Shown in pieces: positions 5,581 to 28,776 of a DNA stretch of 33,135 nt. The notes beneath the pieces were generated by a model. The model was not told the origin of the DNA. It searched no databases and saw nothing but the letters and a program-made list of their open reading frames with translations. This stretch comes from an uncultured Mycoplasmatota bacterium. Lineage in GTDB: Bacteria > Bacillota_I > Bacilli_A > RF39 > UBA660. The DNA lies in contig CANPIH010000007.1 in NCBI GenBank assembly GCA_947574085.1, positions 1-33,135 of the forward strand, given 5' to 3'. Position 1 is the stretch's first letter; each line of letters opens with the position of its first letter. Both the position numbers and the translations under genes were made by a program.

Positions 5581-5607
5581 AAACTTGTTAGAAAGAGGAC
5601 TTATAAA

Positions 5608-6858
5608 ATGAAAAAAAATGTAGTGGTAAAAGAAATAAAAATTGAAGGAAAAGAATGGGAGTTATGTTTAGACAATTCTTTTAAGAAAAAAAGCAAAGAA
5701 GTAAAAATAGATGGTTTTCGTAAAGGACAAGCTCCTAAACAAGTTTTCATTAAAAAGTTTGGAATAGAATCCCTTTTTATGGACGCTGTAGATGAAGCAG
5801 TTGACACAACTTATAAAAAAATATTAAATGATAAGGAAATTGTGCCAGTTTGTGAACCAAAGCTAGATGTAAAAACAATTAATGAAAAAGAATGTGTATT
5901 AGAATTTACATTTATTACTGCTCCTGAAGTGATTTTAGGTGAGTATAAAAATTTAAAAATAAAAAAACCAGAAGCAAAAGTTACAAAAGAAGAACTAGAG
6001 AAAGAAATAGAAAATTTGCGAAATAAATTTGCAGAGGTAAAAGTTAAGGATGAAAATAGTAAAATTGAGCAAGGAGATACTGCCATTATCAATTTTAAAG
6101 GATATGTGGATGGTAAAGAATTAGAAGGCGGAACAGGAGAAAATTACCCTCTTGAAATTGGGAGTCATTCTTTTATACCAGGTTTTGAAGAAGGCTTACT
6201 AGGACTTGGAATGAATGAAGAGAAAGAACTTAATTTAACTTTTCCCGATAATTACACTGAAGAGTTAAAAAATAAAAAAGTAAAATTTGAAGTCAAAATA
6301 AATGAAATTAAAACTAGAGTTTTGCCAGAACTTAATGAAGACTTTTATTTAGATTTAGGTTACGAAGATATAAAAAACAAAGAAGAATTTGAGAAAAAAG
6401 TTGAAGAAACTTTAATAGAACGTAAAAAGTCAGAAATTGAAGATCAATATATTGAAGATTGTTTATCAAAAGCCAGCGAAAATATGAAGATTGAAATCAA
6501 TGAAGAAATTTTAAATGAGGAAATCCATCGCATGATTCATCAATTTGAAGAACAATTAAAAATGCAAGGATTGAATTTAGAACAATATTTTCAATTTAGT
6601 GGTATGACACATGAAAAAATGCATGAACAAATGAGTCCAGAAGCCACAAAAAGAATTAAATATCGTTATTTACTTGAGAAAGTGGCAGAAATAGAAAATA
6701 TTGAAGTAAGTGAAGAAGATGCTGAAAAACAAGCGAGTGAAATGGCTACAAATTATGGAATATCTAAAGATGAATTATTGAAGGCATATGGAAGTTTAGA
6801 TGTTATAAAATACGATATAAAAATGCGTAATGCAATAGAAATTATAAAAGGAGCTTAA
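5608..6858 (+). CDS. tig: Trigger factor
   Basis: VKIDGFRKGQAPKQVFIKKFG; PPIase segment GDTAIINFKGYVDGKELEGGTGENYPLEIGSHSFIPGFEEGLLG. ORF-track start 5572 lies inside the promoter, so ATG 5608 is preferred. Confidence 0.95.
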   Translation: MKKNVVVKEIKIEGKEWELCLDNSFKKKSKEVKIDGFRKGQAPKQVFIKKFGIESLFMDAVDEAVDTTYKKILNDKEIVPVCEPKLDVKTINEKECVLEFTFITAPEVILGEYKNLKIKKPEAKVTKEELEKEIENLRNKFAEVKVKDENSKIEQGDTAIINFKGYVDGKELEGGTGENYPLEIGSHSFIPGFEEGLLGLGMNEEKELNLTFPDNYTEELKNKKVKFEVKINEIKTRVLPELNEDFYLDLGYEDIKNKEEFEKKVEETLIERKKSEIEDQYIEDCLSKASENMKIEINEEILNEEIHRMIHQFEEQLKMQGLNLEQYFQFSGMTHEKMHEQMSPEATKRIKYRYLLEKVAEIENIEVSEEDAEKQASEMATNYGISKDELLKAYGSLDVIKYDIKMRNAIEIIKGA

Positions 6859-6875
6859 AAGGCTTCTTTTGTATT
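6849..6875 (+). terminator. Terminator overlapping the tig stop codon
   Basis: GGAGCTT/AGGCTTC stem (with G.U pairs) followed by TTTT. Confidence 0.5.
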
Positions 6876-6887
6876 TCTATTTTTAGG

Positions 6888-6916
6888 TTGTAAATCAAAA
6901 AAAATTGGTATATAAT
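6888..6916 (+). promoter_or_regulatory. Promoter of the surface-protein cassette
   Basis: TTGTAA (6888-6893), 17-nt spacer, TATAAT (6911-6916). Confidence 0.7.
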
Positions 6917-6941
6917 AATTTTAAGATAGAGGTGGAAGGAA

Positions 6942-8219
6942 ATGAAAGATGATAGCAGAAATTATCCAACCAATTCCGCGGGAAAACGTAAATTTTCAAA
7001 AAAACCGAAGTCATTTCTTTTTTTATTAATTATTTTAGTCCTTTTAAGTGTTGCACTAGGAATTAGTTATGCATATTGGAAATACAATAGCAATCAAATT
7101 AATGAAAATATTACAAATAGTGCTTGCATTGAAATAGCATTAATAAGTGAAACAGAAGCAATTACCTTACAAAAAGCTCATCCTATTTCAAACACAGAAG
7201 GAGAAAAATTAAATCCTTATACATTTAGTATAAAAAACACTTGTAATAATACATTAGATTATAATGTTGCTTTGGAAGTATTAGAATCAACAGCAAGAAT
7301 GGGAAGCAATAATATTGCAATTAAAATAGATGATAAATTTCCAAAATTACTCACAGAATATACTCTTGGTGTACCAACTTATTTAGAAAATTCGAACCCA
7401 GCGGTAGAAAGTTATATTTTAGAAAATGGTAGAATAAAAGGGGGAGAAACGATTACACATCATCTTCGACTTTGGATTCATGAATCATCTGGCAATGAAA
7501 GTCAAAATAAAGAATTTTTAAGTAAAATTACTATAAACGCTACTACCCCAAATGAAATACTTACAACGCCAAGAATTCTTATTTATAAAGATGAAGAATT
7601 ATTAAAAGAAATAGAAAGCAAAGAAGAAAATCAAGAATACCGAATATATAGTGATAAAGAAGTAAAAGTTCTTGCTTCAGGATTTAGCAATAGCAATAAA
7701 TTATTTTATAGTGAAGAACAAAATGGAGAAAGAAATGAAATTAGTACAAATGAATTTACTATTACTCCATCTCTAGAAGGAACTATTCGCTACATATTTG
7801 TTGAAGACAGTAATAATTATGTAAAATTGGTGATAACAAATAAAGATGATGTCACCCCTCCAATAATTTCAGGAGGAAGTGAAACGTACGCTAAAAATCA
7901 TACCATTCGGATTGAAACTCCTGGTACTGCTACTGCTGAAGTTTCTCATTATGAATACTTTATAAGCGATACTGATTCTATCCCAGCACAGGATGTTACA
8001 GCCCAAAATACTTCAGGTGATCAAGAAATTAATAGAGAAGGAACAAATTATATTTTTTATAGAACCGTTTCCAAAGCTGGAAATAAAAGTGACTGGAGCA
8101 ATTCACAAAAAGTAAATATTTTTTATCGTGCGAGTTCAGTAACCTATACAAATCCAAATGATTCTTCTATAAACAATGCTCAAGAAGTATTAGATAAGTT
8201 GTATGAGTTATTTAAATAA
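6942..8219 (+). CDS. SipW/TasA-type secreted or anchored surface protein with Ig-like region
   Basis: KKPKSFLFLLIILVLLSVALGISYAYW N-terminus typical of SipW-dependent signal peptides; SFSIKNTCNNTLDYNVALEVL-type region; C-terminal SSINNAQEVLDKLYELFK. Confidence 0.65.
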   Translation: MKDDSRNYPTNSAGKRKFSKKPKSFLFLLIILVLLSVALGISYAYWKYNSNQINENITNSACIEIALISETEAITLQKAHPISNTEGEKLNPYTFSIKNTCNNTLDYNVALEVLESTARMGSNNIAIKIDDKFPKLLTEYTLGVPTYLENSNPAVESYILENGRIKGGETITHHLRLWIHESSGNESQNKEFLSKITINATTPNEILTTPRILIYKDEELLKEIESKEENQEYRIYSDKEVKVLASGFSNSNKLFYSEEQNGERNEISTNEFTITPSLEGTIRYIFVEDSNNYVKLVITNKDDVTPPIISGGSETYAKNHTIRIETPGTATAEVSHYEYFISDTDSIPAQDVTAQNTSGDQEINREGTNYIFYRTVSKAGNKSDWSNSQKVNIFYRASSVTYTNPNDSSINNAQEVLDKLYELFK

Positions 8220-8236
8220 ATAAAAAGGAGATAATT

Positions 8237-8701
8237 ATGGAAAAATTAAAAAATAAAAAAGTAATATTTTTTGTTGTAGTTGTAGTAGCAATTGCAGTTC
8301 TTATAATAGGAGCAACGTTTATTTTAAGAAATAAAAAAGGATTAATTAACAATTCAAATCAAAATTCAGAAAATATTTCAAAAGAAAATGAAAATAAGAA
8401 TCCAAATGATAATTTTATTCCAAGTGATAAAGATACCAACTTTGATTTTCATTTGGATGATACCAAATATGAAGAAAATACAACTGAATTTATAGTAACT
8501 ATAACAAATAAATCGAATCAGCCCAAATACTTAAATGAATTTTTTATTCAATTAGAGAGCAATGAGGAAAGTAAAGAACAATTAAGAGTATATGGAATTG
8601 TAGAAAAAGAACTTGCATCGAACGAAACTATAACTATAAATTGTACCTATGGTGATGATTTGAAAAATTATAAAATAATTGGATATTCTATAGAAAAATA
8701 A
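8237..8701 (+). CDS. Membrane-anchored extracellular protein of unknown function
   Basis: N-terminal TM, Asn/Lys-rich linker, beta-rich ectodomain (TEFIVTITNKSNQPKYLNEFFIQLES); RBS AAAAGGAG; between two surface-protein genes. Confidence 0.65.
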   Translation: MEKLKNKKVIFFVVVVVAIAVLIIGATFILRNKKGLINNSNQNSENISKENENKNPNDNFIPSDKDTNFDFHLDDTKYEENTTEFIVTITNKSNQPKYLNEFFIQLESNEESKEQLRVYGIVEKELASNETITINCTYGDDLKNYKIIGYSIEK

Positions 8702-8724
8702 TTTAGAAAGAAAGGTTTTAAAAT

Positions 8725-9972
8725 ATGAAAAAAATAATGTTTATAACGCTTTTAATTTACTTTTCCATTACAAATGTATTTGCTCTTACAACAAATGAAG
8801 TTTTATACGATAAAGAAGGAACAGATATTACTTCAACGGAAGCCTTAGACGAACTATACGATAAATTACATATATGTAGCACTGAAGGAAATGCTACTGC
8901 CAGTGATATATTAGGTGGTAAAACAGCATATAGTAAAGGTGAAAAAGTAACAGGTACCATACCAACTATGACAACGGCAGGTACAACAAGTGATGGGAAA
9001 GCAAAACACGTTGATGCATCGCAAGTGGTGTATGGAAATTACAGTAATGATACCTCAAACAATTATTTATATTTAGGAATAGCTAAACACACATATACGG
9101 GAGAAAATACACATGTAAGAACGTCAGAAAGTGAAGTAGTAAAAGTATTAGGAATTACAGGAGAAAAATTAGCAAAAGGTCAAACAATTGCTGGGGTAAG
9201 TGGAACGTATACAAGCGATGCGAATGCCACCGCAAATAACATTTTGAGCGGAAAAACAGCATACGTTAATGGAAACAAATTAACAGGTACCATAGGAAGT
9301 AAAGGCGCAACGACCTATACACCAAGTACAAAAAATCAAACGATAACAGCAGGACAATATTTAAGTGGAACGCAGACAATAAAAGGAGATGCCAATTTAG
9401 TAGCAAGCAATATTAAAAAGGGAACGTCTATATTTGGAGTTACAGGTACTTACGAAGGAGACATAAAAGTGAAGAATTATAGGAATGTAGTCGCAACAGT
9501 CGAAAGCTACTATAAAGAATTTAAAGGTTCTTACGTTAATATGGCTAATGAAACTTGTGGAGCCAATCAAAATAATTGTAATAGTTCTTACAGTACAATA
9601 TGTCTTAATCTAGGATTTACTCCATCCGATATCATTAACGCCAGTTTACAGTTGAGTGGTGATGGTCTTTTTAGAACGACAAGAGGTGTAGACAGTGCTG
9701 GAATTACTACCTATAGATATTTAAGCAGCTTACCAGGAATCTATGATAAAGCTTTAGCAGGATCCAGCTCTTCACTTCCAAACATGCAATTTGATAATAG
9801 TTCCAATTCCAATACTTCATCTATGAGTAGTTATTATATAGACTATAACAATTCAAAATTATGTTATCGTTTTATTGCAACCTATTGGAGCAATGTAGCT
9901 GGATCGGCTCATAATGCATTCGCTACTAATTCCACATCTTTTAAGATATCTGGAACAGTAGTTTATAGATAA
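8725..9972 (+). CDS. Secreted protein with tail-fibre-like GK-AY-NG-K-TGT repeats
   Basis: Signal peptide MKKIMFITLLIYFSITNVFA; repeats ATASDILGGKTAYSKGEKVTGTI and ATANNILSGKTAYVNGNKLTGTI plus GDANLVASNIKKGTSIFGVTGTY; Cys-containing C-terminal domain. Confidence 0.75.
   Translation: MKKIMFITLLIYFSITNVFALTTNEVLYDKEGTDITSTEALDELYDKLHICSTEGNATASDILGGKTAYSKGEKVTGTIPTMTTAGTTSDGKAKHVDASQVVYGNYSNDTSNNYLYLGIAKHTYTGENTHVRTSESEVVKVLGITGEKLAKGQTIAGVSGTYTSDANATANNILSGKTAYVNGNKLTGTIGSKGATTYTPSTKNQTITAGQYLSGTQTIKGDANLVASNIKKGTSIFGVTGTYEGDIKVKNYRNVVATVESYYKEFKGSYVNMANETCGANQNNCNSSYSTICLNLGFTPSDIINASLQLSGDGLFRTTRGVDSAGITTYRYLSSLPGIYDKALAGSSSSLPNMQFDNSSNSNTSSMSSYYIDYNNSKLCYRFIATYWSNVAGSAHNAFATNSTSFKISGTVVYR
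8893..8961 (+). repeat. Protein repeat copy 1 (ATASDILGGKTAYSKGEKVTGTI)
   Basis: Direct comparison with 9226-9294. Confidence 0.8.
9226..9294 (+). repeat. Protein repeat copy 2 (ATANNILSGKTAYVNGNKLTGTI)
   Basis: Direct comparison with 8893-8961; a third divergent unit lies at 9385-9453. Confidence 0.8.
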
Positions 9973-11788: not shown

Positions 11789-13891
11789 ATGAAGAGAAAC
11801 AATGGTTTAAAATACAATTTAAAAGTTACTATGCTATTGGTTTCTTTTTTATTTGTACTAATAATTTGTAAACTTTTATATGTATCTGTTTCGGAAAAAG
11901 TAGATGGAGTAGATCTTCAAGCTTTTGCTAGTAATCGTAATACAGAGAAAAAAACCTTATTTGCCTCTCGTGGAAGTGTATTTTATGAAAATGGAGACGT
12001 TTTGGCAATTGATACAAATTCTTATACAGTACTTGCTTATTTATCGGCAAGTCGAACAACCGATGAAAATAATCCATATCATGTAATTGATAAAGAAAAA
12101 ACTGCCAAAGAATTGAGTGGAATTTTAGAAAGAGATGAAACAACTTTATTAGAGCTTTTGAATAGAGAAAATTTATATCAAGTGGAATTAAAACGAGGAA
12201 TTTCAGAAAATGATAAAAATAAAATATTGGCTCTCGATTTACCAGGAATAGATTTTGTAAGAAGTACGAAAAGATATTATCCAAATGGCAGATATGCTTC
12301 TTTTATCCTTGGATACGCCAAAGCAAATGACTTTGGAGAAATTAATGGAGAAATGGGTTTAGAACTTTATTATAATGATATTTTGAAGGGAAAAAATGGA
12401 TTCATTGAATATCAAAAAGATCCTTATGGATTTCAAATTCCCAATACACCTGTTATAGAAGAAAAAAGCGTTAGTGGTAAAAACATATATTTAACTTTAA
12501 ATCAGGATATTCAGCATATTTTAGAAAATGCAATCCATAGTTTGGAAAAGGATTATACATTTGATTGGGCAACTATTTCAATTATGAATGCCAAAACGGG
12601 TGCAATTTTAGGTAGTGCAACAAGTCCTAATTTTGATTTAAATACTAGAATTGATTTAGATAGTTATTTAAATCCGTTCATTTCTTATCAATATGAACCA
12701 GGATCAGTTATGAAAATATTTTCATTTATGCAAGCTATTGAAAGTGGAATTTACGATGGATCGAAAATATATAAATCAGGATCTATAACTTTACAAGATG
12801 GAACTAAAATAAATGATTATAATAATAAAGGATGGGGAGAAATAGACTTTGATACTGGTTTTGCTTATTCTAGTAACGTTGCTGCAACAATATTAGCTTT
12901 AGAGCTAGGTGCAGATAAATTAAGATCTTTTTACGATACGTTAGGGTTTGGTAAGGCAACAGGAATTGAATTGCCTAATGAATCCGATGGAAAAATTACT
13001 TTTACTTACGAAAGTGAAGTAGCAACAGCATCTTTTGGTCAAGGGATTACAGTAACACCCATTCAAATTTTACAGGCTTTAACTACTTTAGCAAATGATG
13101 GAATGATGATAAAACCTTATTTAGTATCTAAAATAGTAGATGAAAATGGTACAATTATAGAAGAAAAGGGTAGAACTGAAATTGCTAAAGTAGCAAGTAA
13201 AGAAACTATTGATAAAATGAAAGAATTGATGTATAAAGTGGTTTACGATGCTGGAAATACCAATCGTTTATTTGCACCAGATAATGTTACATTAATTGGA
13301 AAAACAGGAACTGCCCAAATTGCTAGTCCAAAAGGTGGATATTTGGATGGAGAGTACGATTATATCAAAAGTTTTGCTGGTTTATTTCCTTATGAAAATC
13401 CTGAATATATTGTGTATATTGCTGTAAAGCAAATTGTGGGAGGAACAAACGATGTGGCTAAAATAGTTCATAATGTAGTGGAAGAAACAGCTAAGACATT
13501 AAATTTAGTCTCTACAGTAAGTGATGTTGATCAAAGCAAAATTGTAACTTTATCTAATTATATTTCCAATCAAATTCAAACCACTGTGGAAAAATTATTT
13601 TCTCAAGGATTAACACCAATTGTTATTGGTAATGGGAAATATGTTATTAATCAATATCCTTTGCGGAATAAAAAAGTTTTAATAGGATCGAAAGTATTTT
13701 TGCTTACGAATGATACAAACTATAAAATGCCTAATGTTATTGGATGGAGTACTAATGAAATAGTGACCTTATGTAACTTAATAGGAGTTCCTTATGAACT
13801 AAATGGCTATGGAAATGTTAGTTCAATATCAGTTTTGCCAGGAGATTTTATTGATAAGTCAAATCCTATCGTTGTTACGTTAACAAATTAA
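11789..13891 (+). CDS. Division-type class B penicillin-binding protein (PbpB/FtsI-like) with C-terminal PASTA domain
   Basis: SVMK, SSN and KTGTAQ motifs; KMPNVIGWSTNEIVTLCNLIGVPYELNG PASTA segment; dcw position. Confidence 0.92.
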   Translation: MKRNNGLKYNLKVTMLLVSFLFVLIICKLLYVSVSEKVDGVDLQAFASNRNTEKKTLFASRGSVFYENGDVLAIDTNSYTVLAYLSASRTTDENNPYHVIDKEKTAKELSGILERDETTLLELLNRENLYQVELKRGISENDKNKILALDLPGIDFVRSTKRYYPNGRYASFILGYAKANDFGEINGEMGLELYYNDILKGKNGFIEYQKDPYGFQIPNTPVIEEKSVSGKNIYLTLNQDIQHILENAIHSLEKDYTFDWATISIMNAKTGAILGSATSPNFDLNTRIDLDSYLNPFISYQYEPGSVMKIFSFMQAIESGIYDGSKIYKSGSITLQDGTKINDYNNKGWGEIDFDTGFAYSSNVAATILALELGADKLRSFYDTLGFGKATGIELPNESDGKITFTYESEVATASFGQGITVTPIQILQALTTLANDGMMIKPYLVSKIVDENGTIIEEKGRTEIAKVASKETIDKMKELMYKVVYDAGNTNRLFAPDNVTLIGKTGTAQIASPKGGYLDGEYDYIKSFAGLFPYENPEYIVYIAVKQIVGGTNDVAKIVHNVVEETAKTLNLVSTVSDVDQSKIVTLSNYISNQIQTTVEKLFSQGLTPIVIGNGKYVINQYPLRNKKVLIGSKVFLLTNDTNYKMPNVIGWSTNEIVTLCNLIGVPYELNGYGNVSSISVLPGDFIDKSNPIVVTLTN

Positions 13892-13901
13892 ATTGCTGAT
13901 T

Positions 13902-13920
13902 TTATAACTTTCAGTTATAA
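13902..13920 (+). promoter_or_regulatory. Inverted repeat upstream of the truncated paralog (TTATAACT-TTC-AGTTATAA)
   Basis: Perfect 8-bp stem, 3-nt loop; overlaps a TATAAT-like hexamer; weak terminator or promoter element. Confidence 0.5.
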
Positions 13921-13949
13921 TAAAATAAAGTAAATGAAGAGGTGTTTTT

Positions 13950-14492
13950 ATGAATCTAGCTATTTATAATGCCAAAATTGCCAGTTTTCGTGAAGAAGTA
14001 CGAGAATTAAAGAAAAATATTTTAAAACGGAAAATAGAAAATGTTTCGGATTTTAATGCCCTTTTTCGTGAGGTAAATTCCATGATTTCTGAATACAATG
14101 CTCTTTATTATGGATTTGCTAATCCAGTAAACCAAGAACAATTTATTAAATATATGGAAGGAGAAAATGATTTTTTGTCAACAATTAACAATTTAACGAA
14201 AATTTTAAAAGAGCATCACCAAAAAAATGGTCTTTTTGTGGAAGATTATGTAATTCAAAAAGAATGGGAACATGTAAAAAAAATCATAGAATACAATAAC
14301 TGTTTAGTCGAATTAAGAACTATTTTCCCAGAATTATCTGATTTTTCCAATCCAAAGAAAATAGAATATAATGATCGATTTGTATATTTAAATGAAAAAA
14401 TTACTAAATTAGAGTTGGAAAAAAAGGAAGCAGAAAATCGAATTATAGAATTAGCAAATAAAAATAAATTAAAAAAAGAAAAGAAGCGTTAA
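13950..14492 (+). CDS. Truncated paralog (180 aa) of the 786-aa coiled-coil protein, N-terminal domain only
   Basis: First 168 aa identical to ORF 14797-17157, then a different Lys-rich tail ANKNKLKKEKKR; RBS GAGGTG retained. Confidence 0.7.
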   Translation: MNLAIYNAKIASFREEVRELKKNILKRKIENVSDFNALFREVNSMISEYNALYYGFANPVNQEQFIKYMEGENDFLSTINNLTKILKEHHQKNGLFVEDYVIQKEWEHVKKIIEYNNCLVELRTIFPELSDFSNPKKIEYNDRFVYLNEKITKLELEKKEAENRIIELANKNKLKKEKKR

Positions 14493-14558
14493 GATCTATA
14501 AACTATATTTTAGAAAAAAGAACGAAAAAGTTTCTCCGATAAAGAAAGTATAACAAAA

Positions 14559-14738
14559 TGATACAAACTATAGAATGCCTAATGTTATTGGATGGAGTAC
14601 TAAAGAATTAGTAACCTTATGTAACTTAATAGGAGTTCCTTATGAACTAAAAGGCTATGAAAATGTAAATTCAACATGAGTTTTGCCAGGAGTTTTAATG
14701 ATAAGTCAAATCCTATCGTTGTTACGTCAACAAATTAA
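14559..14738 (+). pseudogene. Relic of the PBP PASTA 3' end
   Basis: DTNYRMPNVIGWSTKELVTLCNLIGVPYELKGYENVNST then in-frame TGA (14677-14679) and a 1-nt deletion; matches 13711-13891 with about a dozen substitutions. Confidence 0.9.
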
Positions 14739-14748
14739 ATTGCAGATT

Positions 14749-14767
14749 TTATAACTTTCAGTTATAA
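14749..14767 (+). promoter_or_regulatory. Duplicated inverted repeat upstream of the 786-aa gene
   Basis: Same TTATAACT-TTC-AGTTATAA, exactly 847 nt downstream of the first. Confidence 0.5.
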
Positions 14768-14796
14768 TAAAATAAAGTAAATGAAGAGGTGTTTTT

Positions 14797-17157
14797 ATGA
14801 ATCTAGCTATTTATAATGCCAAAATTGCCAGTTTTCGTGAAGAAGTACGAGAATTAAAGAAAAATATTTTAAAACGGAAAATAGAAAATGTTTCGGATTT
14901 TAATGCCCTTTTTCGTGAGGTAAATTCCATGATTTCTGAATACAATGCTCTTTATTATGGATTTGCTAATCCAGTAAACCAAGAACAATTTATTAAATAT
15001 ATGGAAGGAGAAAATGATTTTTTGTCAACAATTAACAATTTAACGAAAATTTTAAAAGAGCATCACCAAAAAAATGGTCTTTTTGTGGAAGATTATGTAA
15101 TTCAAAAAGAATGGGAACATGTAAAAAAAATCATAGAATACAATAACTGTTTAGTCGAATTAAGAACTATTTTCCCAGAATTATCTGATTTTTCCAATCC
15201 AAAGAAAATAGAATATAATGATCGATTTGTATATTTAAATGAAAAAATTACTAAATTAGAGTTGGAAAAAAAGGAAGCAGAAAATCGAATTATTGAATTA
15301 AATAAAAATACACCAAAAGGAGAGTATAAAAAAGATCATGAAAAAATAGTCAAGGCTCAAGAGGAAATAAATCAAAAAGGAAAAGAAGCATTAAGATCTA
15401 TAGGCTATATTTTAGAAACAAAAGATAAAAATATAGAAACTTCTACATTTTCAGAAACAGTTTCTATCGATAAAGAAAGTATAGTAATTCGAGAGGAATA
15501 TTTAAACTCTCTTCCTACCATTACTTCCAAAATAGAATATGTGGAGGCAGTGCTTGATAATATTGAAAGATTACCAGGAAAAAAAGTCTTAAAGTTTAAA
15601 GGTTCAACAGAAACCATAGCTAAAAGCTTTAGAGGACGTTATCTTATTTATCAGCAAAGACTTATAAAATTAAAAGAGCAATACGAAGAGGAACAAAAAA
15701 AATTTTTGCGAAAAATTGAAGAAGAACACGAAGCGGTTGCTCTAGCCGAAGAAGAAGCAAGAGAAGATAAAATTGAGCTTTATATCATAGGAAAAAATTT
15801 ACAAGATATAGAAGAGGAACTTTTTGCTTTAGGAAACGAGGCTACACCTTATATCAATACCAATAAAGTAGCTATTGTTGCTTCAGTTCACGAGGAACCT
15901 TTTTATGTATTAAAAACAAAACTGGAAAAATTTAATAAAATTTTTGTGGAGTATAAAAGTTTGCAAAAAAAATACCAGAAATTAGCTAATTTTCTTCAAA
16001 TTGAACCTATTTCAACTTTAGAAAAATGGAAAATTATTGAAAAAGAAGAAAAAAAATGTTTTGAAGAGATAGAATTTTTAAAAAAGCAAACAGAAACAAA
16101 AGAGACAAAAAGTAAAATTAATCAGTTAAAAAATGAAATCTATAAAAAAAATCAGAGTAAAGAATTTGCTTTATTTGTCAATATCAAAAACATGTTATCA
16201 ACTTATTATTTAAATAATAACATTCGCTCTTTTTATGAAAAAATTATGAAAGATCCAAAAAAGTTTCTTTTATCAAAAGATTACGCAAATGATGAAAAAA
16301 GACAAATATTTATGGATTTAATAGCAAAAACTTCAGAGTATATAAAAAAATCTCAAGAAAAAAGGGCAAAAGATTCTAAGAAACCGATAAAAACAAAAGA
16401 AATAATAGAAAATTCGTTTATAGAATTAAAAAGAAATTTGAATTTAATTCCTAAAACAAAAAAAAATGTTTTCAAAATCAAGAAAAATAGAGAAGCAAAT
16501 TATAAAACAAAATTAGCCTATACTGTTTGTGCAACGGCTACTGGATGTGCCTTTTTACTTGGGTTAAATGTTATTAGTTATGCGTGCAATAGTACTTCTT
16601 CGAAAAAAGTATTTACAGCGAATACAAAAGAATTTATGACCTCTAATTCCAGTCGTATAAGTGGTAGTATAGAAAAAGATATAAAGAAAGTTTTAAATGA
16701 AGAAAACAAACAAATTCAAAATGTTTTAAAAAATACATATTCTTATACTGAAAATGAACTAGAAGATTTTAAAAAAGAAAAAATTGCATTAGAAAAAGTA
16801 AAAAAAGATGTAAATCAGGATAATCAGAAAAGAAATTTTGATGACCTTTTTACTAATAAAAATGGTGTTTACATTTCGCAAGAAGACTTACTGAAGGAAG
16901 AGAACAAACAACCACTTTATTTTTCTGAGGATAGTCTAAGTACGGTAAAAGGAATTGTTTATTCTTATAATGGAACCAGTATTACAATTTTTGAAGATGA
17001 TCCAGAAGCTAAAGAAAAAATAAAAGCTATAGAAAACCATGGTGCAAAACAAATTGGTTATGTGGGAACGAATCTACAAGCTATTGGAACAGGCTATGAA
17101 GGTTTTTTCGCTAATAAAGATATTCAATTTGTAGAAGAGGAAGGACGCAGTAGATAA
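14797..17157 (+). CDS. Large coiled-coil single-pass membrane protein of unknown function
   Basis: About 570 aa of Lys/Glu-rich helical sequence, one TM (KLAYTVCATATGCAFLLGLNVISYAC), then a ~200-aa C-terminal, probably extracytoplasmic, domain. Confidence 0.8.
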   Translation: MNLAIYNAKIASFREEVRELKKNILKRKIENVSDFNALFREVNSMISEYNALYYGFANPVNQEQFIKYMEGENDFLSTINNLTKILKEHHQKNGLFVEDYVIQKEWEHVKKIIEYNNCLVELRTIFPELSDFSNPKKIEYNDRFVYLNEKITKLELEKKEAENRIIELNKNTPKGEYKKDHEKIVKAQEEINQKGKEALRSIGYILETKDKNIETSTFSETVSIDKESIVIREEYLNSLPTITSKIEYVEAVLDNIERLPGKKVLKFKGSTETIAKSFRGRYLIYQQRLIKLKEQYEEEQKKFLRKIEEEHEAVALAEEEAREDKIELYIIGKNLQDIEEELFALGNEATPYINTNKVAIVASVHEEPFYVLKTKLEKFNKIFVEYKSLQKKYQKLANFLQIEPISTLEKWKIIEKEEKKCFEEIEFLKKQTETKETKSKINQLKNEIYKKNQSKEFALFVNIKNMLSTYYLNNNIRSFYEKIMKDPKKFLLSKDYANDEKRQIFMDLIAKTSEYIKKSQEKRAKDSKKPIKTKEIIENSFIELKRNLNLIPKTKKNVFKIKKNREANYKTKLAYTVCATATGCAFLLGLNVISYACNSTSSKKVFTANTKEFMTSNSSRISGSIEKDIKKVLNEENKQIQNVLKNTYSYTENELEDFKKEKIALEKVKKDVNQDNQKRNFDDLFTNKNGVYISQEDLLKEENKQPLYFSEDSLSTVKGIVYSYNGTSITIFEDDPEAKEKIKAIENHGAKQIGYVGTNLQAIGTGYEGFFANKDIQFVEEEGRSR

Positions 17158-17444
17158 TGGAAAAATTTGAATTGTATAAGATTTTAACTATAGAAACTGA
17201 AGAAGGTAATGATAAAGATTATACCATTGCAAATATATTAGAATATAATGAGACCACTTATTTTTATCTAATTGAAGTTGACAAAGAAGAGAATTTAATT
17301 GAAAAAAATCAAATGATTGTTAGATTAGTTAGTCAAAATGGAGAAGACGCAGTAGAAAAAGTTACTAATAAAGAGGAATTGAAAGAAGTAACAAGTTTAT
17401 TTTTTGATATATTTAGAGACGAAATTGAAAAGGACAATAATTAA
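17157..17444 (+). CDS. DUF1292-like acidic protein (second in the window)
   Basis: LTIETEEGNDKDYTIANILEYNETTYFYLIEVDKEE; TAATG overlap with the 786-aa gene. Confidence 0.6.
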   Translation: MEKFELYKILTIETEEGNDKDYTIANILEYNETTYFYLIEVDKEENLIEKNQMIVRLVSQNGEDAVEKVTNKEELKEVTSLFFDIFRDEIEKDNN

Positions 17445-17587: not shown

Positions 17588-18265
17588 ATGAATACAAATA
17601 GTGTGATGATCGGCGATTCAATTAAACTCAATACTCGTATAAATAGTTTACTTTATTTAAAAATAAAACGTGTTTTTGATATTTTTTTCGGCTTATTTGG
17701 AGTGTTTTGCATGTTACCCATTGCTTTTATTATTAAAATAATTTGTATTTTTAATCATGATCATAATAGTATATTCTTCAAACAACAAAGAATTGGAAGA
17801 AATGGTAAAATGTTTTCAATGTATAAATTTAGAACAATGGTTCCTAATGCTAATCAAGCTTTAATCGAACTTATGCGTACCAATCCAGATTTTAGAAATG
17901 AATATTACCAAAACAAAAAAGTCAAGAATGATCCTCGCATTACAAAAATAGGAAAAATCTTGCGTAAAACATCATTAGATGAAATACCTCAATTTATAAA
18001 CGTTTTATTAGGTGATATGAGTTTAGTAGGAAATCGTCCTTATTTACCTATTGAAAAAGAAGATATGGGAGGGTATTTTAACATCATAACCTCTACGAAA
18101 CCAGGCTTAACTGGAATTTGGCAAGTTAGTGGTCGTAGCAATACAACTTTTCAAAAGAGATTGATTTTAGAAAAAAATTACAGTTTAAATTATAGCCTTA
18201 AAATAGATCTAGAAATTATTTGGAAAACTATTATTCAAATTTTTAAAAGAGAAGGAGCAGAATAA
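17588..18265 (+). CDS. Initiating sugar transferase (undecaprenyl-phosphate glycosyl-1-phosphate transferase, bacterial sugar transferase family)
   Basis: KRVFDIFFGLFG; FKQQRIGRNGKMFSMYKFRTM; LRKTSLDEIPQFINVLLGDMSLVGNRPY; KPGLTGIWQVSGRS. Confidence 0.95.
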   Translation: MNTNSVMIGDSIKLNTRINSLLYLKIKRVFDIFFGLFGVFCMLPIAFIIKIICIFNHDHNSIFFKQQRIGRNGKMFSMYKFRTMVPNANQALIELMRTNPDFRNEYYQNKKVKNDPRITKIGKILRKTSLDEIPQFINVLLGDMSLVGNRPYLPIEKEDMGGYFNIITSTKPGLTGIWQVSGRSNTTFQKRLILEKNYSLNYSLKIDLEIIWKTIIQIFKREGAE

Positions 18266-18294
18266 AAATGAAAAGGGAGAAAAAAGTGTGTTAA

Positions 18295-18322
18295 AATAAC
18301 TATAGATATAGTTATTTTTTTT
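18295..18322 (+). terminator. Hairpin/terminator inside the polysaccharide locus
   Basis: AATAACTATA-GA-TATAGTTATT followed by T run. Confidence 0.75.
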
Positions 18323-18341
18323 ATAAGGAGTTGAATAAGAT

Positions 18342-19589
18342 TTGAAGAAAAGACGAATGTTACTATATGCTCATTATTTTTACCCTGAAGTAGCTTCAAC
18401 GGCTCAAATTCTTACTGACTTATGTCAAGGCTTAAAAGATGAATTTTTAATTACAGTTGTTTGCACAGTTCCAAGTTATGTAGGTAAAATAGATAAAAAA
18501 TACAAACAAAAGAAATATTATTTTGAAAATTACGAGGGAATAAAATTAATTAGAGTTCGAGTTAAAGAATTTCAAAAGAAAAAGAAAATAAGTAGATTAA
18601 TGCATATACTTAGCTATTTTTGGAATGCCATTTTTGCAACTTTTAAAGTTGGACATCAAGACATAGTTTTTGCAATATCTCAACCTCCAATTTTAGGAGG
18701 TATTCTTGGAAATTTAGGACGAATAATTACAAAGGGAAAATTTATTTATAATATTCAAGATTTTAATCCAGAACAAATTATGGCTGTAAAATATTCAAAA
18801 AATAAATTTCTTTTAAAGTGTCTTCTTTGGCTTGATAAACATTCTTGTCAAAAAGCGGACCTGATTATCACCGTAGGATATGATATGCAAAAAACTCTAG
18901 AAAAACGTTTTTTTAAAAAGAAAGTACCTCAAAATGTTGTAATACATAATTGGATAAATGAAAGAGAAGTTTATCCTTTAGAAAAAACAAACAAAAACGT
19001 TCAAAAATTTCAAAAAAAGTTTGCTTTGGAAAATAAATTTGTAATTATGTATTCTGGAAATTTAGGATTGTATTATGATTTAGAAAATTTAATAAAAGTA
19101 TTTCAAGAATTTAAAGAAGAAAAAGAAATAGTTTTTGTTTTTGTAGGAGATGGCTCATTAAAAGAAAAATTAGAACAATACGCTTTTAGTAACAAATTAG
19201 ACAATATAACATTTATTCCTTATCAAGAAAAAAAGAATTTAATTTATAGTTTGAATTCTGCAAATATTCATTTGGTTACCAATGCAAAAGGAATCAAAGG
19301 GATTTCTGTACCAAGTAAAATTTATGGTTGCTTAGCAACCAATATTCCTATTTTTGGGATAGTTGAAAAAGGATCAGAGGCATGGAATATTATTAAAAAA
19401 TCCAATTGTGGAATTCTTTCTTCTCCAGAAAAGTATGAAGATATTAAACAAAATTTGCAAAAAATAATATTAGAAAAAGAAGAATTTGTAAATCAGCATA
19501 AAACAGGTAGAAAGTATTTAGAAGAAAATTTTACAAAAGACAAAGCGGTTCATAAATACCTTGAGGAAATAAAAAAGTTAATTGAGTAG
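18342..19589 (+). CDS. Glycosyltransferase family 4 (WcaI-like)
   Basis: YAHYFYPEVASTAQILTDL; IMYSGNLGLYYDLENLI; VFVGDGSLKEKLE; VPSKIYGCLATNIPIFG. TTG start with AAGGAG upstream. Confidence 0.9.
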   Translation: MKKRRMLLYAHYFYPEVASTAQILTDLCQGLKDEFLITVVCTVPSYVGKIDKKYKQKKYYFENYEGIKLIRVRVKEFQKKKKISRLMHILSYFWNAIFATFKVGHQDIVFAISQPPILGGILGNLGRIITKGKFIYNIQDFNPEQIMAVKYSKNKFLLKCLLWLDKHSCQKADLIITVGYDMQKTLEKRFFKKKVPQNVVIHNWINEREVYPLEKTNKNVQKFQKKFALENKFVIMYSGNLGLYYDLENLIKVFQEFKEEKEIVFVFVGDGSLKEKLEQYAFSNKLDNITFIPYQEKKNLIYSLNSANIHLVTNAKGIKGISVPSKIYGCLATNIPIFGIVEKGSEAWNIIKKSNCGILSSPEKYEDIKQNLQKIILEKEEFVNQHKTGRKYLEENFTKDKAVHKYLEEIKKLIE

Positions 19590-19597
19590 GTGTCTTA

Positions 19598-20317
19598 ATG
19601 AAAGAAAGAGATTTTTTTATATCAGTTGCTATGGCAACATATAATGGTGAACAATTTATTCATGAACAAATTGCTTCTATTTTAAAAAATTTAAATGAAA
19701 AAGATGAACTTATAATATCGGATGATGACTCAACAGATCGTACAATACCTATTATTCTTTCTTTTAAAGACAGAAGAATTCATGTAATAAAAGGACCAAA
19801 AAAAGGAGTAAAGCAAAACTTTGCAAATGCAATTGCCAGTTGTAAAGGAAAATACATTTTTTTATCGGATCAAGATGACCTATGGCATAAAGAAAAAGTG
19901 GAAAAGATTTTGGAAGTTTTTCAAAAAGAAAGATGTGATTGTGTGACCCATGATTGTGAAGTGGTAAATAATGATAATTCTAAAGTAATCATTGCTTCTT
20001 TTTTTGCTCATAGAAAATCAAAGCCTGGAATTATTCAAAATATATATAAAAATAAATATTTAGGTTGCTGTATGGCTTTTCATAAAAATATGATAAAATA
20101 TATATTACCTATTCCAGATACAATTGAAATGCATGATCAATGGATAGGAATTGTATGTGATAAATATGGAAAATCTGTTTTTTTAAAAGAAAAATTGATA
20201 AAATATCGTCGTCATGCTAAAAATGTATCTGCAATGCACCATTATCCACTAGCAAAAATGATTAAAAATAGAATTGTATTGCTAATTGAATTTTACAAAA
20301 GAGTAAAAAGAAAGTAA
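19598..20317 (+). CDS. Glycosyltransferase family 2 (rhamnosyltransferase-like)
   Basis: ISVAMATYNGEQFIHEQIASIL; ELIISDDDSTDRT; FLSDQDDLWHKEKVEK. Confidence 0.93.
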   Translation: MKERDFFISVAMATYNGEQFIHEQIASILKNLNEKDELIISDDDSTDRTIPIILSFKDRRIHVIKGPKKGVKQNFANAIASCKGKYIFLSDQDDLWHKEKVEKILEVFQKERCDCVTHDCEVVNNDNSKVIIASFFAHRKSKPGIIQNIYKNKYLGCCMAFHKNMIKYILPIPDTIEMHDQWIGIVCDKYGKSVFLKEKLIKYRRHAKNVSAMHHYPLAKMIKNRIVLLIEFYKRVKRK

Positions 20318-20338
20318 TTAAATAAAAAGAAAGGTTGA

Positions 20339-21406
20339 ATGAGTATGATTCCATATATCCTTTTAATATTCTTAATAGTTGTTTCTTATTTTTTAATAAA
20401 CAAACGATTCAATAATGCTAAAAAAAAATATTGCATTTTTGTAGGAGTCCTTTTATTTTTACTCCTTGCTTTTCGTAATACATCTTTAGGTATAGACCTA
20501 AAAAGATTATATATTCCCTATTTTAATATTATTAAAAATTTATCTTTTGGAGAAACAATCCGTTTTAGTCAGAGTCACCAAACAGAAGTTGTATTTTATT
20601 TGCTAAACAAAACAATTTCATTATTTACTGACAATATTCATTTTTATTTAGCTATTGTAGCCATTCCATATATTTTTACAGTTAGTCGATTTATTTACAA
20701 ATACTCAAAAAATCCACTTTTAAGTTTTTTGATTTTTCTTTCTTTAAACTATTATTGTTTTAGTTTTTCGGCCTTGCGTCATACTTTAGCAGCGAGTTTC
20801 TTAATTTTTAGTTATGATTATTTAAAAGAAAAAAAATGGTTACCCTTTCTTTTTTGTGTAATACTTGCTTCTTTATTTCATCGTACAGCTTTCATTTTTT
20901 TGCTTGCTTATCCTTTAGCGTATTTAAAAATAAATTGGAAGCAAATTGTGCTTAGCCTTTTGCTTATTTTTTGTTCTACTTTATTAAGAGATTTTTTATT
21001 CCAGTTGCTATTTTTTATTTTTGATTCTGGACATTTTGCTAATTATTTAAATATTGGAGAATCAATGAGTTTGGTATTTTTTACCATTAATTTTTTACTA
21101 TATTTATTTATGATATACTTATTTAAGAATAATAAAAATAAAATGGAAAATCGTGTTCTTTTGAATTTACAATTTTTATGTATTTGCTTTGCTTCTTTAA
21201 CTCCTGTATTAGGAGAAATGATTCGAATTAGTTTCTTCTTTGGTGTATTCTTATGTGCAAGTTTACCCAATGCCATAGAGAATTCAAAATACGCACAAAA
21301 TAAAAAGGTATATTATAGTGTTTTAAGTATTAGTTTTATTCTTTATTTTTTCAACTTCACCCTTTATAATAGTTCATTAGTACCTTATGTAAGTATTTTT
21401 GATTAG
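20339..21406 (+). CDS. EpsG/Wzy-like polysaccharide polymerase
   Basis: Multi-TM; LLAFRNTSLGIDLKRLYIPYF; SFSALRHTLAASFLIFSYDYLKEKKWLPFLFCVILASLFHRTAFIFL. Confidence 0.88.
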   Translation: MSMIPYILLIFLIVVSYFLINKRFNNAKKKYCIFVGVLLFLLLAFRNTSLGIDLKRLYIPYFNIIKNLSFGETIRFSQSHQTEVVFYLLNKTISLFTDNIHFYLAIVAIPYIFTVSRFIYKYSKNPLLSFLIFLSLNYYCFSFSALRHTLAASFLIFSYDYLKEKKWLPFLFCVILASLFHRTAFIFLLAYPLAYLKINWKQIVLSLLLIFCSTLLRDFLFQLLFFIFDSGHFANYLNIGESMSLVFFTINFLLYLFMIYLFKNNKNKMENRVLLNLQFLCICFASLTPVLGEMIRISFFFGVFLCASLPNAIENSKYAQNKKVYYSVLSISFILYFFNFTLYNSSLVPYVSIFD

Positions 21407-21420
21407 AAGGAGATGTATTT

Positions 21421-22329
21421 ATGGACAAAGAAACAATGGAAGCCTTAGAAAAAATAGTAGCCAAATACAATTTACTTATAGCTTCTAAAGAATATAAAAC
21501 AGGAGTAAAATGGATAGAACTTAATACTCTTATGAAAAAAGGAAAAATTTTTACCATCTTAAAAAAAATTATTGTTCATAAAAAGATAAAAAAATATGAA
21601 AATCCTACGCCCACTTTTTTTTCAATTAACAACACACCCATCGTTAAAAAGAAAATTGTTATATACTCTTGCATAATTGGAGATTACGACAATATAAGAA
21701 ATCCAATTTTTAAAAATCCTAATTGTGACTATATTCTTTTTACAGATAATTCCAAAATTCAAAAATGTAGTTGGGATATTCAAGAAATAGCAAAAGAAAT
21801 AAAAGAAAAATATTCCAATAATAAAACAATAATCAATCGTTATTATAAATTAAATCCACAAGAGTTGTTTCCAAATTACGATTATGCAATTTATGTAGAT
21901 GGTAATGTTGAAATCGTATCGGATTTAACCACATTAATTCATAACGTTGGTTCTTTAGGAATTGCTTTACATAAGCATTGCTTTCGTAACTGCATATATG
22001 ATGAATTAGAAGCCTGCAAAATTTTAAAAAAAGGAAATATTTTCAAACTTCAAAATCAAATCGAAAATTATAAAAAGGAAAATTTTCCTTCTCACTATGG
22101 GATGGCAGAATGTGGTTTAATAATTACCGATTTAAAAGAAGAAGTAGCAAAAGAAATTATGAGAGATTGGTTTTTGGAGTTTTTTCATTCTTCAAGTTTA
22201 AGAGATCAAATTGCATTACCATATATTTTATGGAAGAAAAATATCAAAGTAGAGCAAATTACAACCTTAGGAAATAATATTTTCCAAAATCCCAAAATGA
22301 TTATTCATAAAAATCATAAAAAAAATTAA
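21421..22329 (+). CDS. DUF616 / TOD1-MUCI70 glycosyltransferase-like protein
   Basis: KIVIYSCIIGDYDNIRNPIF...YILFTDN; YKLNPQELFPNYDYAIYVDGNVEI; HKHCFRNCIYDELEACK. Confidence 0.75.
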   Translation: MDKETMEALEKIVAKYNLLIASKEYKTGVKWIELNTLMKKGKIFTILKKIIVHKKIKKYENPTPTFFSINNTPIVKKKIVIYSCIIGDYDNIRNPIFKNPNCDYILFTDNSKIQKCSWDIQEIAKEIKEKYSNNKTIINRYYKLNPQELFPNYDYAIYVDGNVEIVSDLTTLIHNVGSLGIALHKHCFRNCIYDELEACKILKKGNIFKLQNQIENYKKENFPSHYGMAECGLIITDLKEEVAKEIMRDWFLEFFHSSSLRDQIALPYILWKKNIKVEQITTLGNNIFQNPKMIIHKNHKKN

Positions 22330-22347
22330 AAGAGGGAGAAGAAACTT

Positions 22348-23259
22348 ATGATTCAGAAAATAAAAAGTTATATTTTGCATCCTAATAAATGGATTGTTTT
22401 TTTGGCTTCTAGAAATATTTTAAAAATAAATGATGAAAAATATTTAAAAATTATCTATAAAATAATAATGGGTAAACAACTAAATTTAGAAAATCCTATA
22501 ACTTTTAATGAAAAAATAAATTGGTTAAAATTGTATGATCGAAAAGAAATTTATACAATTATGGTTGATAAATATTTGGTGAAGAATTGGGTGGCCTCAA
22601 AAATAGGAGAAGAATATATAATTCCAACAATAAATGTATACAATTCTTGGAAAGAAATTAATTTTGATGATTTACCAAATCAATTTGTTTTAAAATGCAA
22701 TCATGACTCGGGTGGAAATATTGTTTGTCAAGATAAAAAAAACTTAGATTTCCAAAAAGCTAAGAAAAAAATTAAAAAAACATTACGAAGAAATTTTTAT
22801 TATTTGGCTCGAGAATGGCCTTATAAGAATGTAGATAAAAAAATAATTGTGGAAAAGTACATGAGCGATGATAAGCAAAAAAAAGGATTGATCGATTACA
22901 AATTTATGTGCTTTCATGGAAAAGCCAAATACATTTTTGTTTGTCAAAATCGAGAGAGTAAATTTGGTGTAACAATTGATATCTTAAATACAAAGTGGGA
23001 AAAATTGCCTTATAGACGAAAAAATCATAATTCTAGTAAAAATATAATAAAACCTAAAAATTATGAATTAATGATTCAATTGGCAGAAAAGTTAGCAGAA
23101 AATGTTCCTTTTTTAAGAGTCGATTTTTATGAAATAAACTATAAAGTTTACTTTGGAGAAATGACATTTTATCCTGGTGGTGGACTAGAAAAATTTGAAC
23201 CAGAAGATTTTGATAAAATTCTAGGAGACAGCTTGGAAATAGGAGGGATAAGAAAATGA
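22348..23259 (+). CDS. TupA-like ATP-grasp protein
   Basis: NPITFNEKINWLKLYDRKEIYTIMVDKYLVKNWVASKIGEEYIIPT; QFVLKCNHDSGGNIV; IVEKYM; DYKFMCFHGKAKYIFV; LRVDFYEINYKVYFGEMTFYPGGGLEKF. Confidence 0.87.
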   Translation: MIQKIKSYILHPNKWIVFLASRNILKINDEKYLKIIYKIIMGKQLNLENPITFNEKINWLKLYDRKEIYTIMVDKYLVKNWVASKIGEEYIIPTINVYNSWKEINFDDLPNQFVLKCNHDSGGNIVCQDKKNLDFQKAKKKIKKTLRRNFYYLAREWPYKNVDKKIIVEKYMSDDKQKKGLIDYKFMCFHGKAKYIFVCQNRESKFGVTIDILNTKWEKLPYRRKNHNSSKNIIKPKNYELMIQLAEKLAENVPFLRVDFYEINYKVYFGEMTFYPGGGLEKFEPEDFDKILGDSLEIGGIRK

Positions 23260-24752
23260 GAACCAAAATGGCTATCAAAAATGTATTTTTTTCTTTACTA
23301 CTTCAATTGGTTTCCATTATTTGTGGATTAATTGTACCTAAAATGATCATTACTCATTATGGATCAGCAACAAATGGTTTGATTGTTTCCATTACTCAAT
23401 TTTTGGCTTATATAGCTTTGTTAGAATCGGGGATAGGGCCAGTAGTTAAAGCGAAATTGTATAAACCTATTGCTGAAAAAAAGAAACAAGAAATTGAAAA
23501 CATACTGTTTGCTTCTGAACGTTTTTTTAAGTGGATTGCTAAAATTTTTTTAATATATGTATTTGCTTTGTGTATTTTTTATCCATTAATTGTAGCCAGC
23601 CAATTTGAAAAAGGATTTACTATATCTTTGATTGTCATTTTATCTTTAAGTACATTAGTAGAATATTATTTTGGCATTACGTATAAATTGTACTTGCAAG
23701 CAGAACAAAAAACCTACATAACGTCTTATTTTCAAATCGTATCTACAATTTTAAATACGATTGGTGTTTGTATTCTGGTATTTTTAGGAGCGAATTTGCT
23801 GTTTGTCAAAATTTTAAGCACTGTATTTTTTATCATACGTCCATTATTACAAAATTATTATGTAAAAAAAAGATTTAATCTTCATTTGCAAAATGCAAAT
23901 AAAAAATATATTTTAGAACAAAAATGGGATGGTTTGGCACAACATATAGCTGCGGTTATACACGGAAATACAGATATTACCATTTTAACTCTTTTTGCTA
24001 CCATTTCAGAAGTTTCTATTTATTCCATCTATTTATTAGTTATAAATGGAGTAAAACGAGTTATTTCTTCCTTTACTGGTGGTATAGATGCCTCCTTTGG
24101 AAATATGATAGCTAGAGAGGAATTAACAACTTTAAACAAAAGTTTTAATGGGTATGAATTTCTTTATTTTACCTTAATAACAATTATATACAGTTGCACT
24201 TTTTTATTAATTGTTCCTTTTGTAAAAATATATACTTTTGGGATAAAAGATGCCAATTACGTACGGCCACTTTTTGCCATTTTAATCGTTTTTTCTGAAT
24301 TTATGCATTCAATAAGACTTCCTTACAGTTCTTTAGTGATGGCAAGTGGTCATTTTAAAGAAACAAGAAGAGGTGCATGGTTAGAATCAATAATTAATAT
24401 AATTTTATCGCTACTTTTCGTTTTTCAATTTGGATTAATTGGAGTAGCTATTGGTACACTTTGTGCTATGACAATTCGAACCATCGAATTTGTAAAACAC
24501 ACCTCTTATTTTATTCTTAAAAGAAATATAAAAGAATCTGTTAAAAAGATCGGTCTATGTCTCATGGAAACATTAGTTATAGTTAGCATTTTTTGGTACA
24601 TACCAATAAAAATATATAACTATTTTAGCTGGATTTCTTACGCTTCTTTTGTTTTTCTATTTTCTTCTTTATTTGTGTTTTTTATAAATAGATTTATATT
24701 TAAAGACTCTTATCGATATATAAAGAGTACTTTAAAAAAACTTAAAAAATAA
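23256..24752 (+). CDS. Wzx-like lipopolysaccharide/oligosaccharide flippase
   Basis: Multi-TM with IVPKMIITHYGSATNGLIVSITQFLAYIALLESGIGPVV; ATGA overlap with the ATP-grasp gene. Confidence 0.9.
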   Translation: MRTKMAIKNVFFSLLLQLVSIICGLIVPKMIITHYGSATNGLIVSITQFLAYIALLESGIGPVVKAKLYKPIAEKKKQEIENILFASERFFKWIAKIFLIYVFALCIFYPLIVASQFEKGFTISLIVILSLSTLVEYYFGITYKLYLQAEQKTYITSYFQIVSTILNTIGVCILVFLGANLLFVKILSTVFFIIRPLLQNYYVKKRFNLHLQNANKKYILEQKWDGLAQHIAAVIHGNTDITILTLFATISEVSIYSIYLLVINGVKRVISSFTGGIDASFGNMIAREELTTLNKSFNGYEFLYFTLITIIYSCTFLLIVPFVKIYTFGIKDANYVRPLFAILIVFSEFMHSIRLPYSSLVMASGHFKETRRGAWLESIINIILSLLFVFQFGLIGVAIGTLCAMTIRTIEFVKHTSYFILKRNIKESVKKIGLCLMETLVIVSIFWYIPIKIYNYFSWISYASFVFLFSSLFVFFINRFIFKDSYRYIKSTLKKLKK

Positions 24753-24769
24753 AAAAAATGTCTAAATAT

Positions 24770-24797
24770 TGTAAATTTATGACAATTTACAGTTTTT
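24770..24797 (+). terminator. Inverted repeat after the flippase gene, possible terminator
   Basis: TGTAAATT-TATGAC-AATTTACA then GTTTTT. Confidence 0.5.
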
Positions 24798-24799
24798 AC

Positions 24800-24828
24800 T
24801 TGCAAAAAATTCAAAAAAAGTATAAAAT
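24800..24828 (+). promoter_or_regulatory. Probable promoter of the sortase operon
   Basis: TTGCAA (24800-24805), 17-nt spacer, TAAAAT (24823-24828) within TATAAAAT. Confidence 0.5.
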
Positions 24829-24856
24829 ACAACGTAAAAGAGAGGGATGATTATTT

Positions 24857-25363: not shown

Positions 25364-25369
25364 TAATAA
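25341..25369 (+). promoter_or_regulatory. 12-bp perfect hairpin between sortase substrate and sortase gene
   Basis: TTATTACTAGAA-AAAAA-TTCTAGTAATAA spanning the substrate stop codon; no T run follows. Confidence 0.75.
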
Positions 25370-25378
25370 AAATAATAC

Positions 25379-27238: not shown

Positions 27239-27270
27239 GTGAAGACAACTGTCAAAATCTTTAAATATAG

Positions 27271-27304
27271 AACTCGTTTCTTTGAGTAAGAAATGAGTTT
27301 TTTT
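27271..27304 (+). terminator. Intrinsic terminator after the VanZ-family gene
   Basis: AACTCGTTTCTT-TGAGT-AAGAAATGAGTT followed by T run. Confidence 0.85.
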
Positions 27305-27373
27305 AATTTTTGCTTCCTCTTGGTTGTAAACTTTAATTCTCTAGAATTACTCCTATGCAAAAAAAATAATTAA

Positions 27374-27382
27374 TGATATAAT
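27374..27382 (+). promoter_or_regulatory. Extended -10 promoter of the CpsC/D/B module
   Basis: TGA-TATAAT. Confidence 0.6.
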
Positions 27383-28768: not shown

Positions 28769-28776
28769 GATTTTAA

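What the first reader, a model, noticed from the sequence alone, without database searches (positions are those of the whole stretch)
13711..15483. Tandem duplication with an identical core and decayed flanks: possible gene conversion maintaining a truncated paralog
Structure is A-S-S-B, where S holds the PBP 3' end, the intergenic region and the 5' part of the 786-aa gene. Both outer genes stay intact and the inner junction leaves debris. By eye the PASTA relic differs from the functional PBP by about 12 substitutions, one 1-nt deletion and a stop. From about 13900 to 14440 versus 14747 to 15287 I see no nucleotide difference, synonymous sites included. On the far side the first copy has large deletions. 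One duplication event with neutral decay should diverge evenly, so an identical island points to ongoing gene conversion or selection to keep two copies.
Basis: partly seen in the sequence, partly recalled or inferred. Interest (0 to 1): 0.8.

Follow-up and report, generated by a model that had tools for sequence, protein, structure and literature searches.

The report
Tandem repeat with one homogenised core
In an uncultured gut bacterium, a short duplicated stretch between two genes has decayed at both inner ends while its 549-base middle is letter-for-letter identical, best explained by recent copying between the two copies; it is a neat but ordinary case that still needs long reads to rule out an assembly artefact.

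Summary
A tandem duplication (copy 1, 13709-14552; copy 2, 14557-15483) joins the PBP 3' end to the 5' part of the next gene. The middle 549 bp (13898-14446 = 14745-15293) has no difference. The flanks have 13 substitutions plus a deletion in 188 columns on the left, and 9 substitutions plus several indels in about 104 columns on the right. Even spread of differences is rejected (union bound 1.3e-8). Constraint is not the cause: across the genus the core diverges more than the PASTA tail. No relative carries this duplication (19 genus loci; 69 wider loci), so it is specific to this lineage. Best reading: an old tandem duplication whose inner halves decayed, then recent homogenisation (gene conversion or unequal crossing-over) of the core. 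Not shown: that conversion is ongoing, or that selection keeps the 180-aa truncated ORF. The main rival is de Bruijn bubble collapse in this fragmented MAG. Simulation makes collapse of a uniformly 7%-diverged repeat unlikely (P about 0.009 at k=39, 0.001 at k=77), but exact identity and copy number remain unproven without reads. A specialist would find it tidy, not surprising.

The parts
11789..13891 (+). Intact PBP (transpeptidase + PBP dimerisation + PASTA), 700 aa; its last 183 bp are the left arm of copy 1
   Evidence: Pfam PF00905, PF03717, PF03793; 19 orthologues in the genus loci
13709..13897 (+). Left arm of copy 1 (functional PBP 3' end plus 6 bp of the intergenic region)
   Evidence: alignment
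13893..13921 (+). Candidate promoter of copy 1: TTGCTG-17 bp-TATAAT (5 of 8 closest relatives read TTGCAG at -35)
   Evidence: intergenic comparison; consensus resemblance only, not listed by the scan
13898..14446 (+). Identical core, copy 1 (549 bp)
   Evidence: 0 differences to 14745-15293
13950..14492 (+). Truncated ORF, 180 aa; its N-terminal part (first ~168 residues) is identical to the 786-aa protein, then a short frameshifted tail and stop
14447..14552 (+). Decayed right arm of copy 1 (9 substitutions, 58-nt and smaller gaps against 15294-15483)
14553..14556 (+). Duplication junction, 4 filler bases
   Evidence: with the sequence
14557..14744 (+). Relic of the PBP 3' end (PASTA): 13 substitutions, one 1-nt deletion, TGA stop; 10 of the 12 substitutions within the coding part are non-synonymous
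14740..14768 (+). Candidate promoter of the full-length gene: TTGCAG-17 bp-TATAAT (matches 5 of 8 closest relatives at -35)
   Evidence: consensus resemblance only
14745..15293 (+). Identical core, copy 2 (549 bp)
14797..17157 (+). Full-length 786-aa gene: helical/coiled-coil N-terminal part, one hydrophobic segment about 570-595, small C-terminal beta domain; fast-evolving, matched only within the genus among the genomes searched, no Pfam/NCBIfam family
15294..15483 (+). Right arm of copy 2 (intact coding sequence)

Best explanation
A tandem duplication of about 0.93 kb arose in this lineage, joining a point in the 786-aa gene (15483) back to a point in the PBP gene (13709). The two outer genes stayed whole and under selection, while the two inner halves (the 5' fragment of the 786-aa gene and the PASTA tail) became debris and decayed by substitutions, frameshift, stop and deletions. 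Later, homologous recombination between the two direct copies made the central 549 bp identical, either by gene conversion or by expansion and contraction through unequal crossing-over. The exchange stopped near the more diverged arms, leaving sharp borders. Shown: the structure, the sharp border, the lack of constraint on the core, and RecA and MutS in the genome. Inferred: the recombination event, its direction (probably full-length gene to truncated copy) and its recency.
For: 0 differences in 549 bp against 6.9% and about 8.7% substitutions in the two flanks; union bound 1.3e-8 against even spread; expected 38 core differences at the left-flank rate, P(0) about 8e-18. The core is less conserved between species than the PASTA tail (nt identity 0.52-0.56 against 0.63-0.72), so constraint cannot keep it identical. 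Relatives have PBP, a short gap, one full gene, then usually DUF1292, with no PASTA relic. Decay falls on the inner copies: at 8 of 12 coding substitutions the outer copy matches the relatives' consensus, including three sites invariant in 19 relatives. The border is sharp: a sharp boundary beats exponential decline by 5.6 log units. RecA and MutS are present in G000. Direct repeats of this size recombine readily: 438-bp repeats at 6.5e-4 in D. radiodurans, more than 10-fold lower for 358-bp repeats with an 850-bp spacer in H. pylori, and mutations in one repeat lower the frequency in a MutS-dependent manner (PMC4627823).
Against: No reads, no second strain and no sister species closer than about 76% PBP identity, so no shared-substitution test was possible. 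Short-read assemblers can merge low-divergence bubbles, so exact identity may be partly artificial. An identical 549-bp direct repeat with a 298-bp spacer should delete itself often, restoring a clean single copy; its persistence beside old debris is unexplained unless the homogenisation is very recent or the copy is useful.
Confidence: 0.62

Rival explanations
1. Assembly artefact of degree: the tandem duplication is real, but the assembler merged the two similar cores (bubble popping), so true differences inside the core were erased and the copy number may be wrong.
For: The genome is a 129-contig MAG. The related records that resolved are MAG contigs, mostly with NODE-style or k-mer contig names. 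Bubble merging is standard in metagenome assemblers (PMC7299287). In simulation a core with 1-2% true divergence would be fully collapsed in 0.72-0.98 of cases at k=77.
Against: A uniformly 7%-diverged repeat would collapse to a run >=549 in only 0.009 of cases at k=39, 0.001 at k=77 and 0 of 20,000 at k>=99. Flank differences separated by clean stretches of 29-38 bp survived, which argues for an effective k above 38. So even with collapse the core must be much less diverged than the flanks.
Confidence: 0.25
2. Recent duplication by an error-prone event: the duplication is young, hence identical in most of its length, and a burst of mutations was laid down around the new junction (error-prone break repair or template switching).
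For: All differences lie between about -108 and +189 bp of the junction at 14553-14556, which such a burst would also give.
Against: Changes do not thin out with distance from the junction (4 in the near half, 10 in the far half of the left arm) and stop abruptly; sharp border preferred by 5.6 log units. At 2-4 coding sites, and at the -35 site 13897, the outer copy looks like the derived one, but this polarisation is weak (P 0.02 with 9 relatives, 0.38 with 19).
Confidence: 0.07
3. Selection on the nucleotide sequence or on both encoded N-terminal domains keeps the cores identical without recombination.
For: The shared part encodes a predicted helical N-terminal domain whose end (about residue 170) falls next to a low-confidence linker at 173-179, so the fragment could fold alone.
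Against: Zero synonymous differences cannot come from protein-level selection. The same region has only 29-39% aa and 52-56% nt identity between species. No Rfam family meets its cut-off there.
Confidence: 0.03

Closest known systems
Intragenomic gene conversion between paralogous repeats in bacteria (e.g. pe_pgrs27/28 and ppe18/19 in M. tuberculosis, PMC12046097)
   Same: A tract of exact identity inside otherwise diverged repeats
   Different: There the unconverted state is available in sister strains and long reads verify it; here neither is available, and the repeats are adjacent
Concerted evolution of duplicated prokaryotic genes (tuf, rRNA operons; PMC6053082, PMC6002687)
   Same: Two copies more alike than their age suggests, attributed to gene conversion or unequal recombination
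   Different: Those are whole functional genes kept alike over long times in many species; here one copy is a 5' fragment in one genome, with no evidence of recurrence
Tandem duplications and deletion between direct repeats (E. coli, D. radiodurans; PMC8378479, PMC4627823)
   Same: Direct repeats close together that can recombine to restore the single-copy arrangement
   Different: A young duplication would be identical all over; this one has aged debris between its identical parts

Membership tests
Gene conversion between direct repeats | Stretch of near-identity significantly longer than expected from the rest of the alignment | tested here: met
   549 bp, union bound 1.3e-8
Gene conversion between direct repeats | Identity not explained by selective constraint | tested here: met
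   core diverges more than the PASTA tail between species
Gene conversion between direct repeats | Unconverted ancestral state, or shared derived substitutions in both copies, seen in related strains | not testable with these tools
   no same-species or near-species genome in the collections searched; closest PBP 76% aa
Gene conversion between direct repeats | Recombination machinery present | tested here: met
   RecA and MutS in G000
Concerted evolution (repeated, lasting) | Both paralogs present in several species with shared synteny, yet more alike within than between genomes | tested here: not met
   no relative carries the duplication; a single lineage-specific case
Functional truncated paralog | ORF kept by selection (dN/dS, expression, retention in other strains) | not testable with these tools
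   copies identical in the shared part, so no dN/dS; no strains, no transcript data
Assembly collapse artefact | Read depth and variant alleles disagree with the contig | not testable with these tools
   no reads; only simulated

The most novel reading that the evidence does not exclude
The first copy is a useful free-standing N-terminal domain (or dosage/decoy copy) of a fast-evolving protein coded in the cell-division cluster. Continual recombination with the full gene keeps it in step with its parent while the debris around it ages, so the locus is a small self-updating pair that could also drop to single copy.
Probability: 0.1. Interest if true: 0.5.

Novelty: new member of a known kind. 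Interest (0 to 1): 0.22.

Why it matters
If the identity is confirmed by reads, it is a compact natural record of recombination tract limits in an uncultured gut lineage: decayed arms date the duplication and the clean core dates the last exchange. It also raises a small puzzle, why a repeat that should delete itself has lasted long enough to carry aged debris. The phenomenon itself is well known.

Tried and rejected
Sister strains: a protein scan of genome contigs with the 786-aa protein found nothing; a genus-wide DNA search gave no closer relative; a viral-contig scan for a core 28-mer gave nothing. An alignment of the 786-aa family was too diverged to scan with. Names came from a PBP profile scan: MAGs of uncultured Bacilli/Tenericutes; several isolate names mention rabbit ('Lapin') or wild mice. 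A structural RNA in the core was sought and none passed. A fold match for the 786-aa protein was sought; nothing significant (best E 0.42; no PDB sequence match). The 180-aa ORF folded alone gave a weak helical model (pLDDT 64). Nucleotide-level constraint rejected. Junction mutation burst disfavoured. A mix of strains stitched together was considered: the linker 14447-14744 continues the core on both sides, so some molecule in the sample must carry at least two cores; a pure chimera is unlikely.

Full report
What is there. The window is contig C7 of a draft genome with 129 contigs, 85.7% complete and 4.2% contaminated. Resolved relatives are MAGs of uncultured Bacilli/Tenericutes; several isolate names mention rabbit ('Lapin') or wild mice. 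Around the finding lie mraZ, mraW, a DivIC/FtsL-like gene, a PBP with a PASTA domain (11789-13891), a 786-aa gene (14797-17157) and a DUF1292 gene (17157-17444).

Alignment. Copy 1 is 13709-14552 and copy 2 is 14557-15483, joined by four filler bases. The core 13898-14446 equals 14745-15293 over 549 bp with no substitution and no indel. The left arm has 13 substitutions and one deletion in 188 ungapped columns. The right arm has 9 substitutions, a 58-nt gap and several smaller gaps in about 104 aligned columns. With 22 substitutions in 841 columns, a clean run of 549 or more has a union-bound probability of 1.3e-8; the longest in 200,000 permutations was 440. At the left-arm rate 38 core differences are expected.

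History. Nineteen genus loci carry the PBP. In most of them a short gap (mostly 53-60 bp where listed), one full-length downstream gene and DUF1292 follow; none has a second PBP tail. None of the 69 wider loci with more than 1.5 kb downstream has a PASTA relic either. So the duplication belongs to this lineage. Ten of the 12 coding substitutions in the relic change the amino acid, one of them making TGA, and three hit sites invariant in all 19 relatives. The relic has thus lost constraint, while the outer genes remain intact.

Why the core is identical. Constraint is excluded: for the same relatives the core has 29-39% aa and 52-56% nt identity, against 58-67% aa and 63-72% nt for the PASTA tail. 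No RNA family meets its cut-off there. A mutation burst around the junction would place differences in the same places, but the changes do not thin out with distance and end abruptly (log-likelihood -73.3 for a sharp border, -78.9 for decline). Recombination between the copies explains a clean tract with sharp ends. RecA and MutS genes are present. Direct repeats of comparable size recombine at frequencies up to 6.5e-4, and mismatches lower that in a MutS-dependent way (PMC4627823), which fits exchange confined to the best-matched middle. Gene conversion and unequal crossing-over cannot be told apart here.

Assembly. The genome is probably short-read (inferred from its fragmentation), and assemblers of that kind merge bubbles (PMC7299287). 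I simulated a repeat diverged evenly by 7% with merging at >=95% similarity (the threshold is my assumption from general knowledge of such assemblers). It collapses to a run of 549 or more in 0.009 of cases at k=39, 0.001 at k=77 and none of 20,000 at k>=99. With 1-2% true divergence collapse is common at k=77 (0.72-0.98). Thus the dip in divergence is likely real, but exact zero is not proven. The linker 14447-14744 continues the core on both sides, so at least two cores must exist on some molecule; the true number could be higher.

Function of the short ORF. The 180-aa ORF (13950-14492) shares its N-terminal part with the 786-aa protein (identical up to the frameshifted tail). The model of the long protein shows mostly confident helices up to about residue 170 and a weak linker at 173-179 (pLDDT 72, pTM 0.37). 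The fragment could be an intact domain, but alone it gives only a weak model. It has its own candidate -10 and ribosome-binding region inside the core; its -35 hexamer reads TTGCTG where the full gene and 5 of 8 close relatives read TTGCAG. None of this shows function. The long protein has no family match above cut-off and no fold match.

Open point. Recombination between the two cores would delete 847 bp and leave exactly the ancestral arrangement. That such a repeat still holds debris with about 7% change implies either that the cores were diverged for most of its life and were homogenised lately, or that losing the copy is costly. I could not decide between these.

Verdict. Observation confirmed; gene conversion or equivalent exchange is the best explanation (0.62); 'ongoing' and 'maintained paralog' are not shown. 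Known kind of event, modest interest.

Noticed in passing
17588-29520: A cassette of about 12 kb with a sugar transferase, glycosyltransferases, EpsG and a TupA-like ATP-grasp gene lies inside the division/cell-wall cluster, between DUF1292 and a second PBP plus MraY. In L061, L065 and L067 that second PBP follows DUF1292 directly, while L062, L069, L073, L074, L076 and L089 have a sugar transferase there: a variable insertion site in a normally conserved cluster.
   Followed up: partly
14797-17157: The 786-aa gene keeps its place after the PBP across the genus but has only about 18-34% identity, against about 71-76% for the upstream PBP and 82-89% for the second PBP: a fast-evolving, probably membrane-anchored coiled-coil-like protein without a known family.
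   Followed up: partly
L055:2309-5260 and 5604-8318; L083:4259-4982 and 6012-6723: Other genomes have older tandem copies of the gene(s) just after this PBP (about 71-79% nt identity in the best parts), so the site has duplicated more than once; no identical island in these.
   Followed up: partly
L071:8495-8660 and 8591-8777: Internal repeat (80% over 187 bp, with a 97% stretch of 70 bp) just downstream of the PBP, inside the next gene.
   Followed up: no
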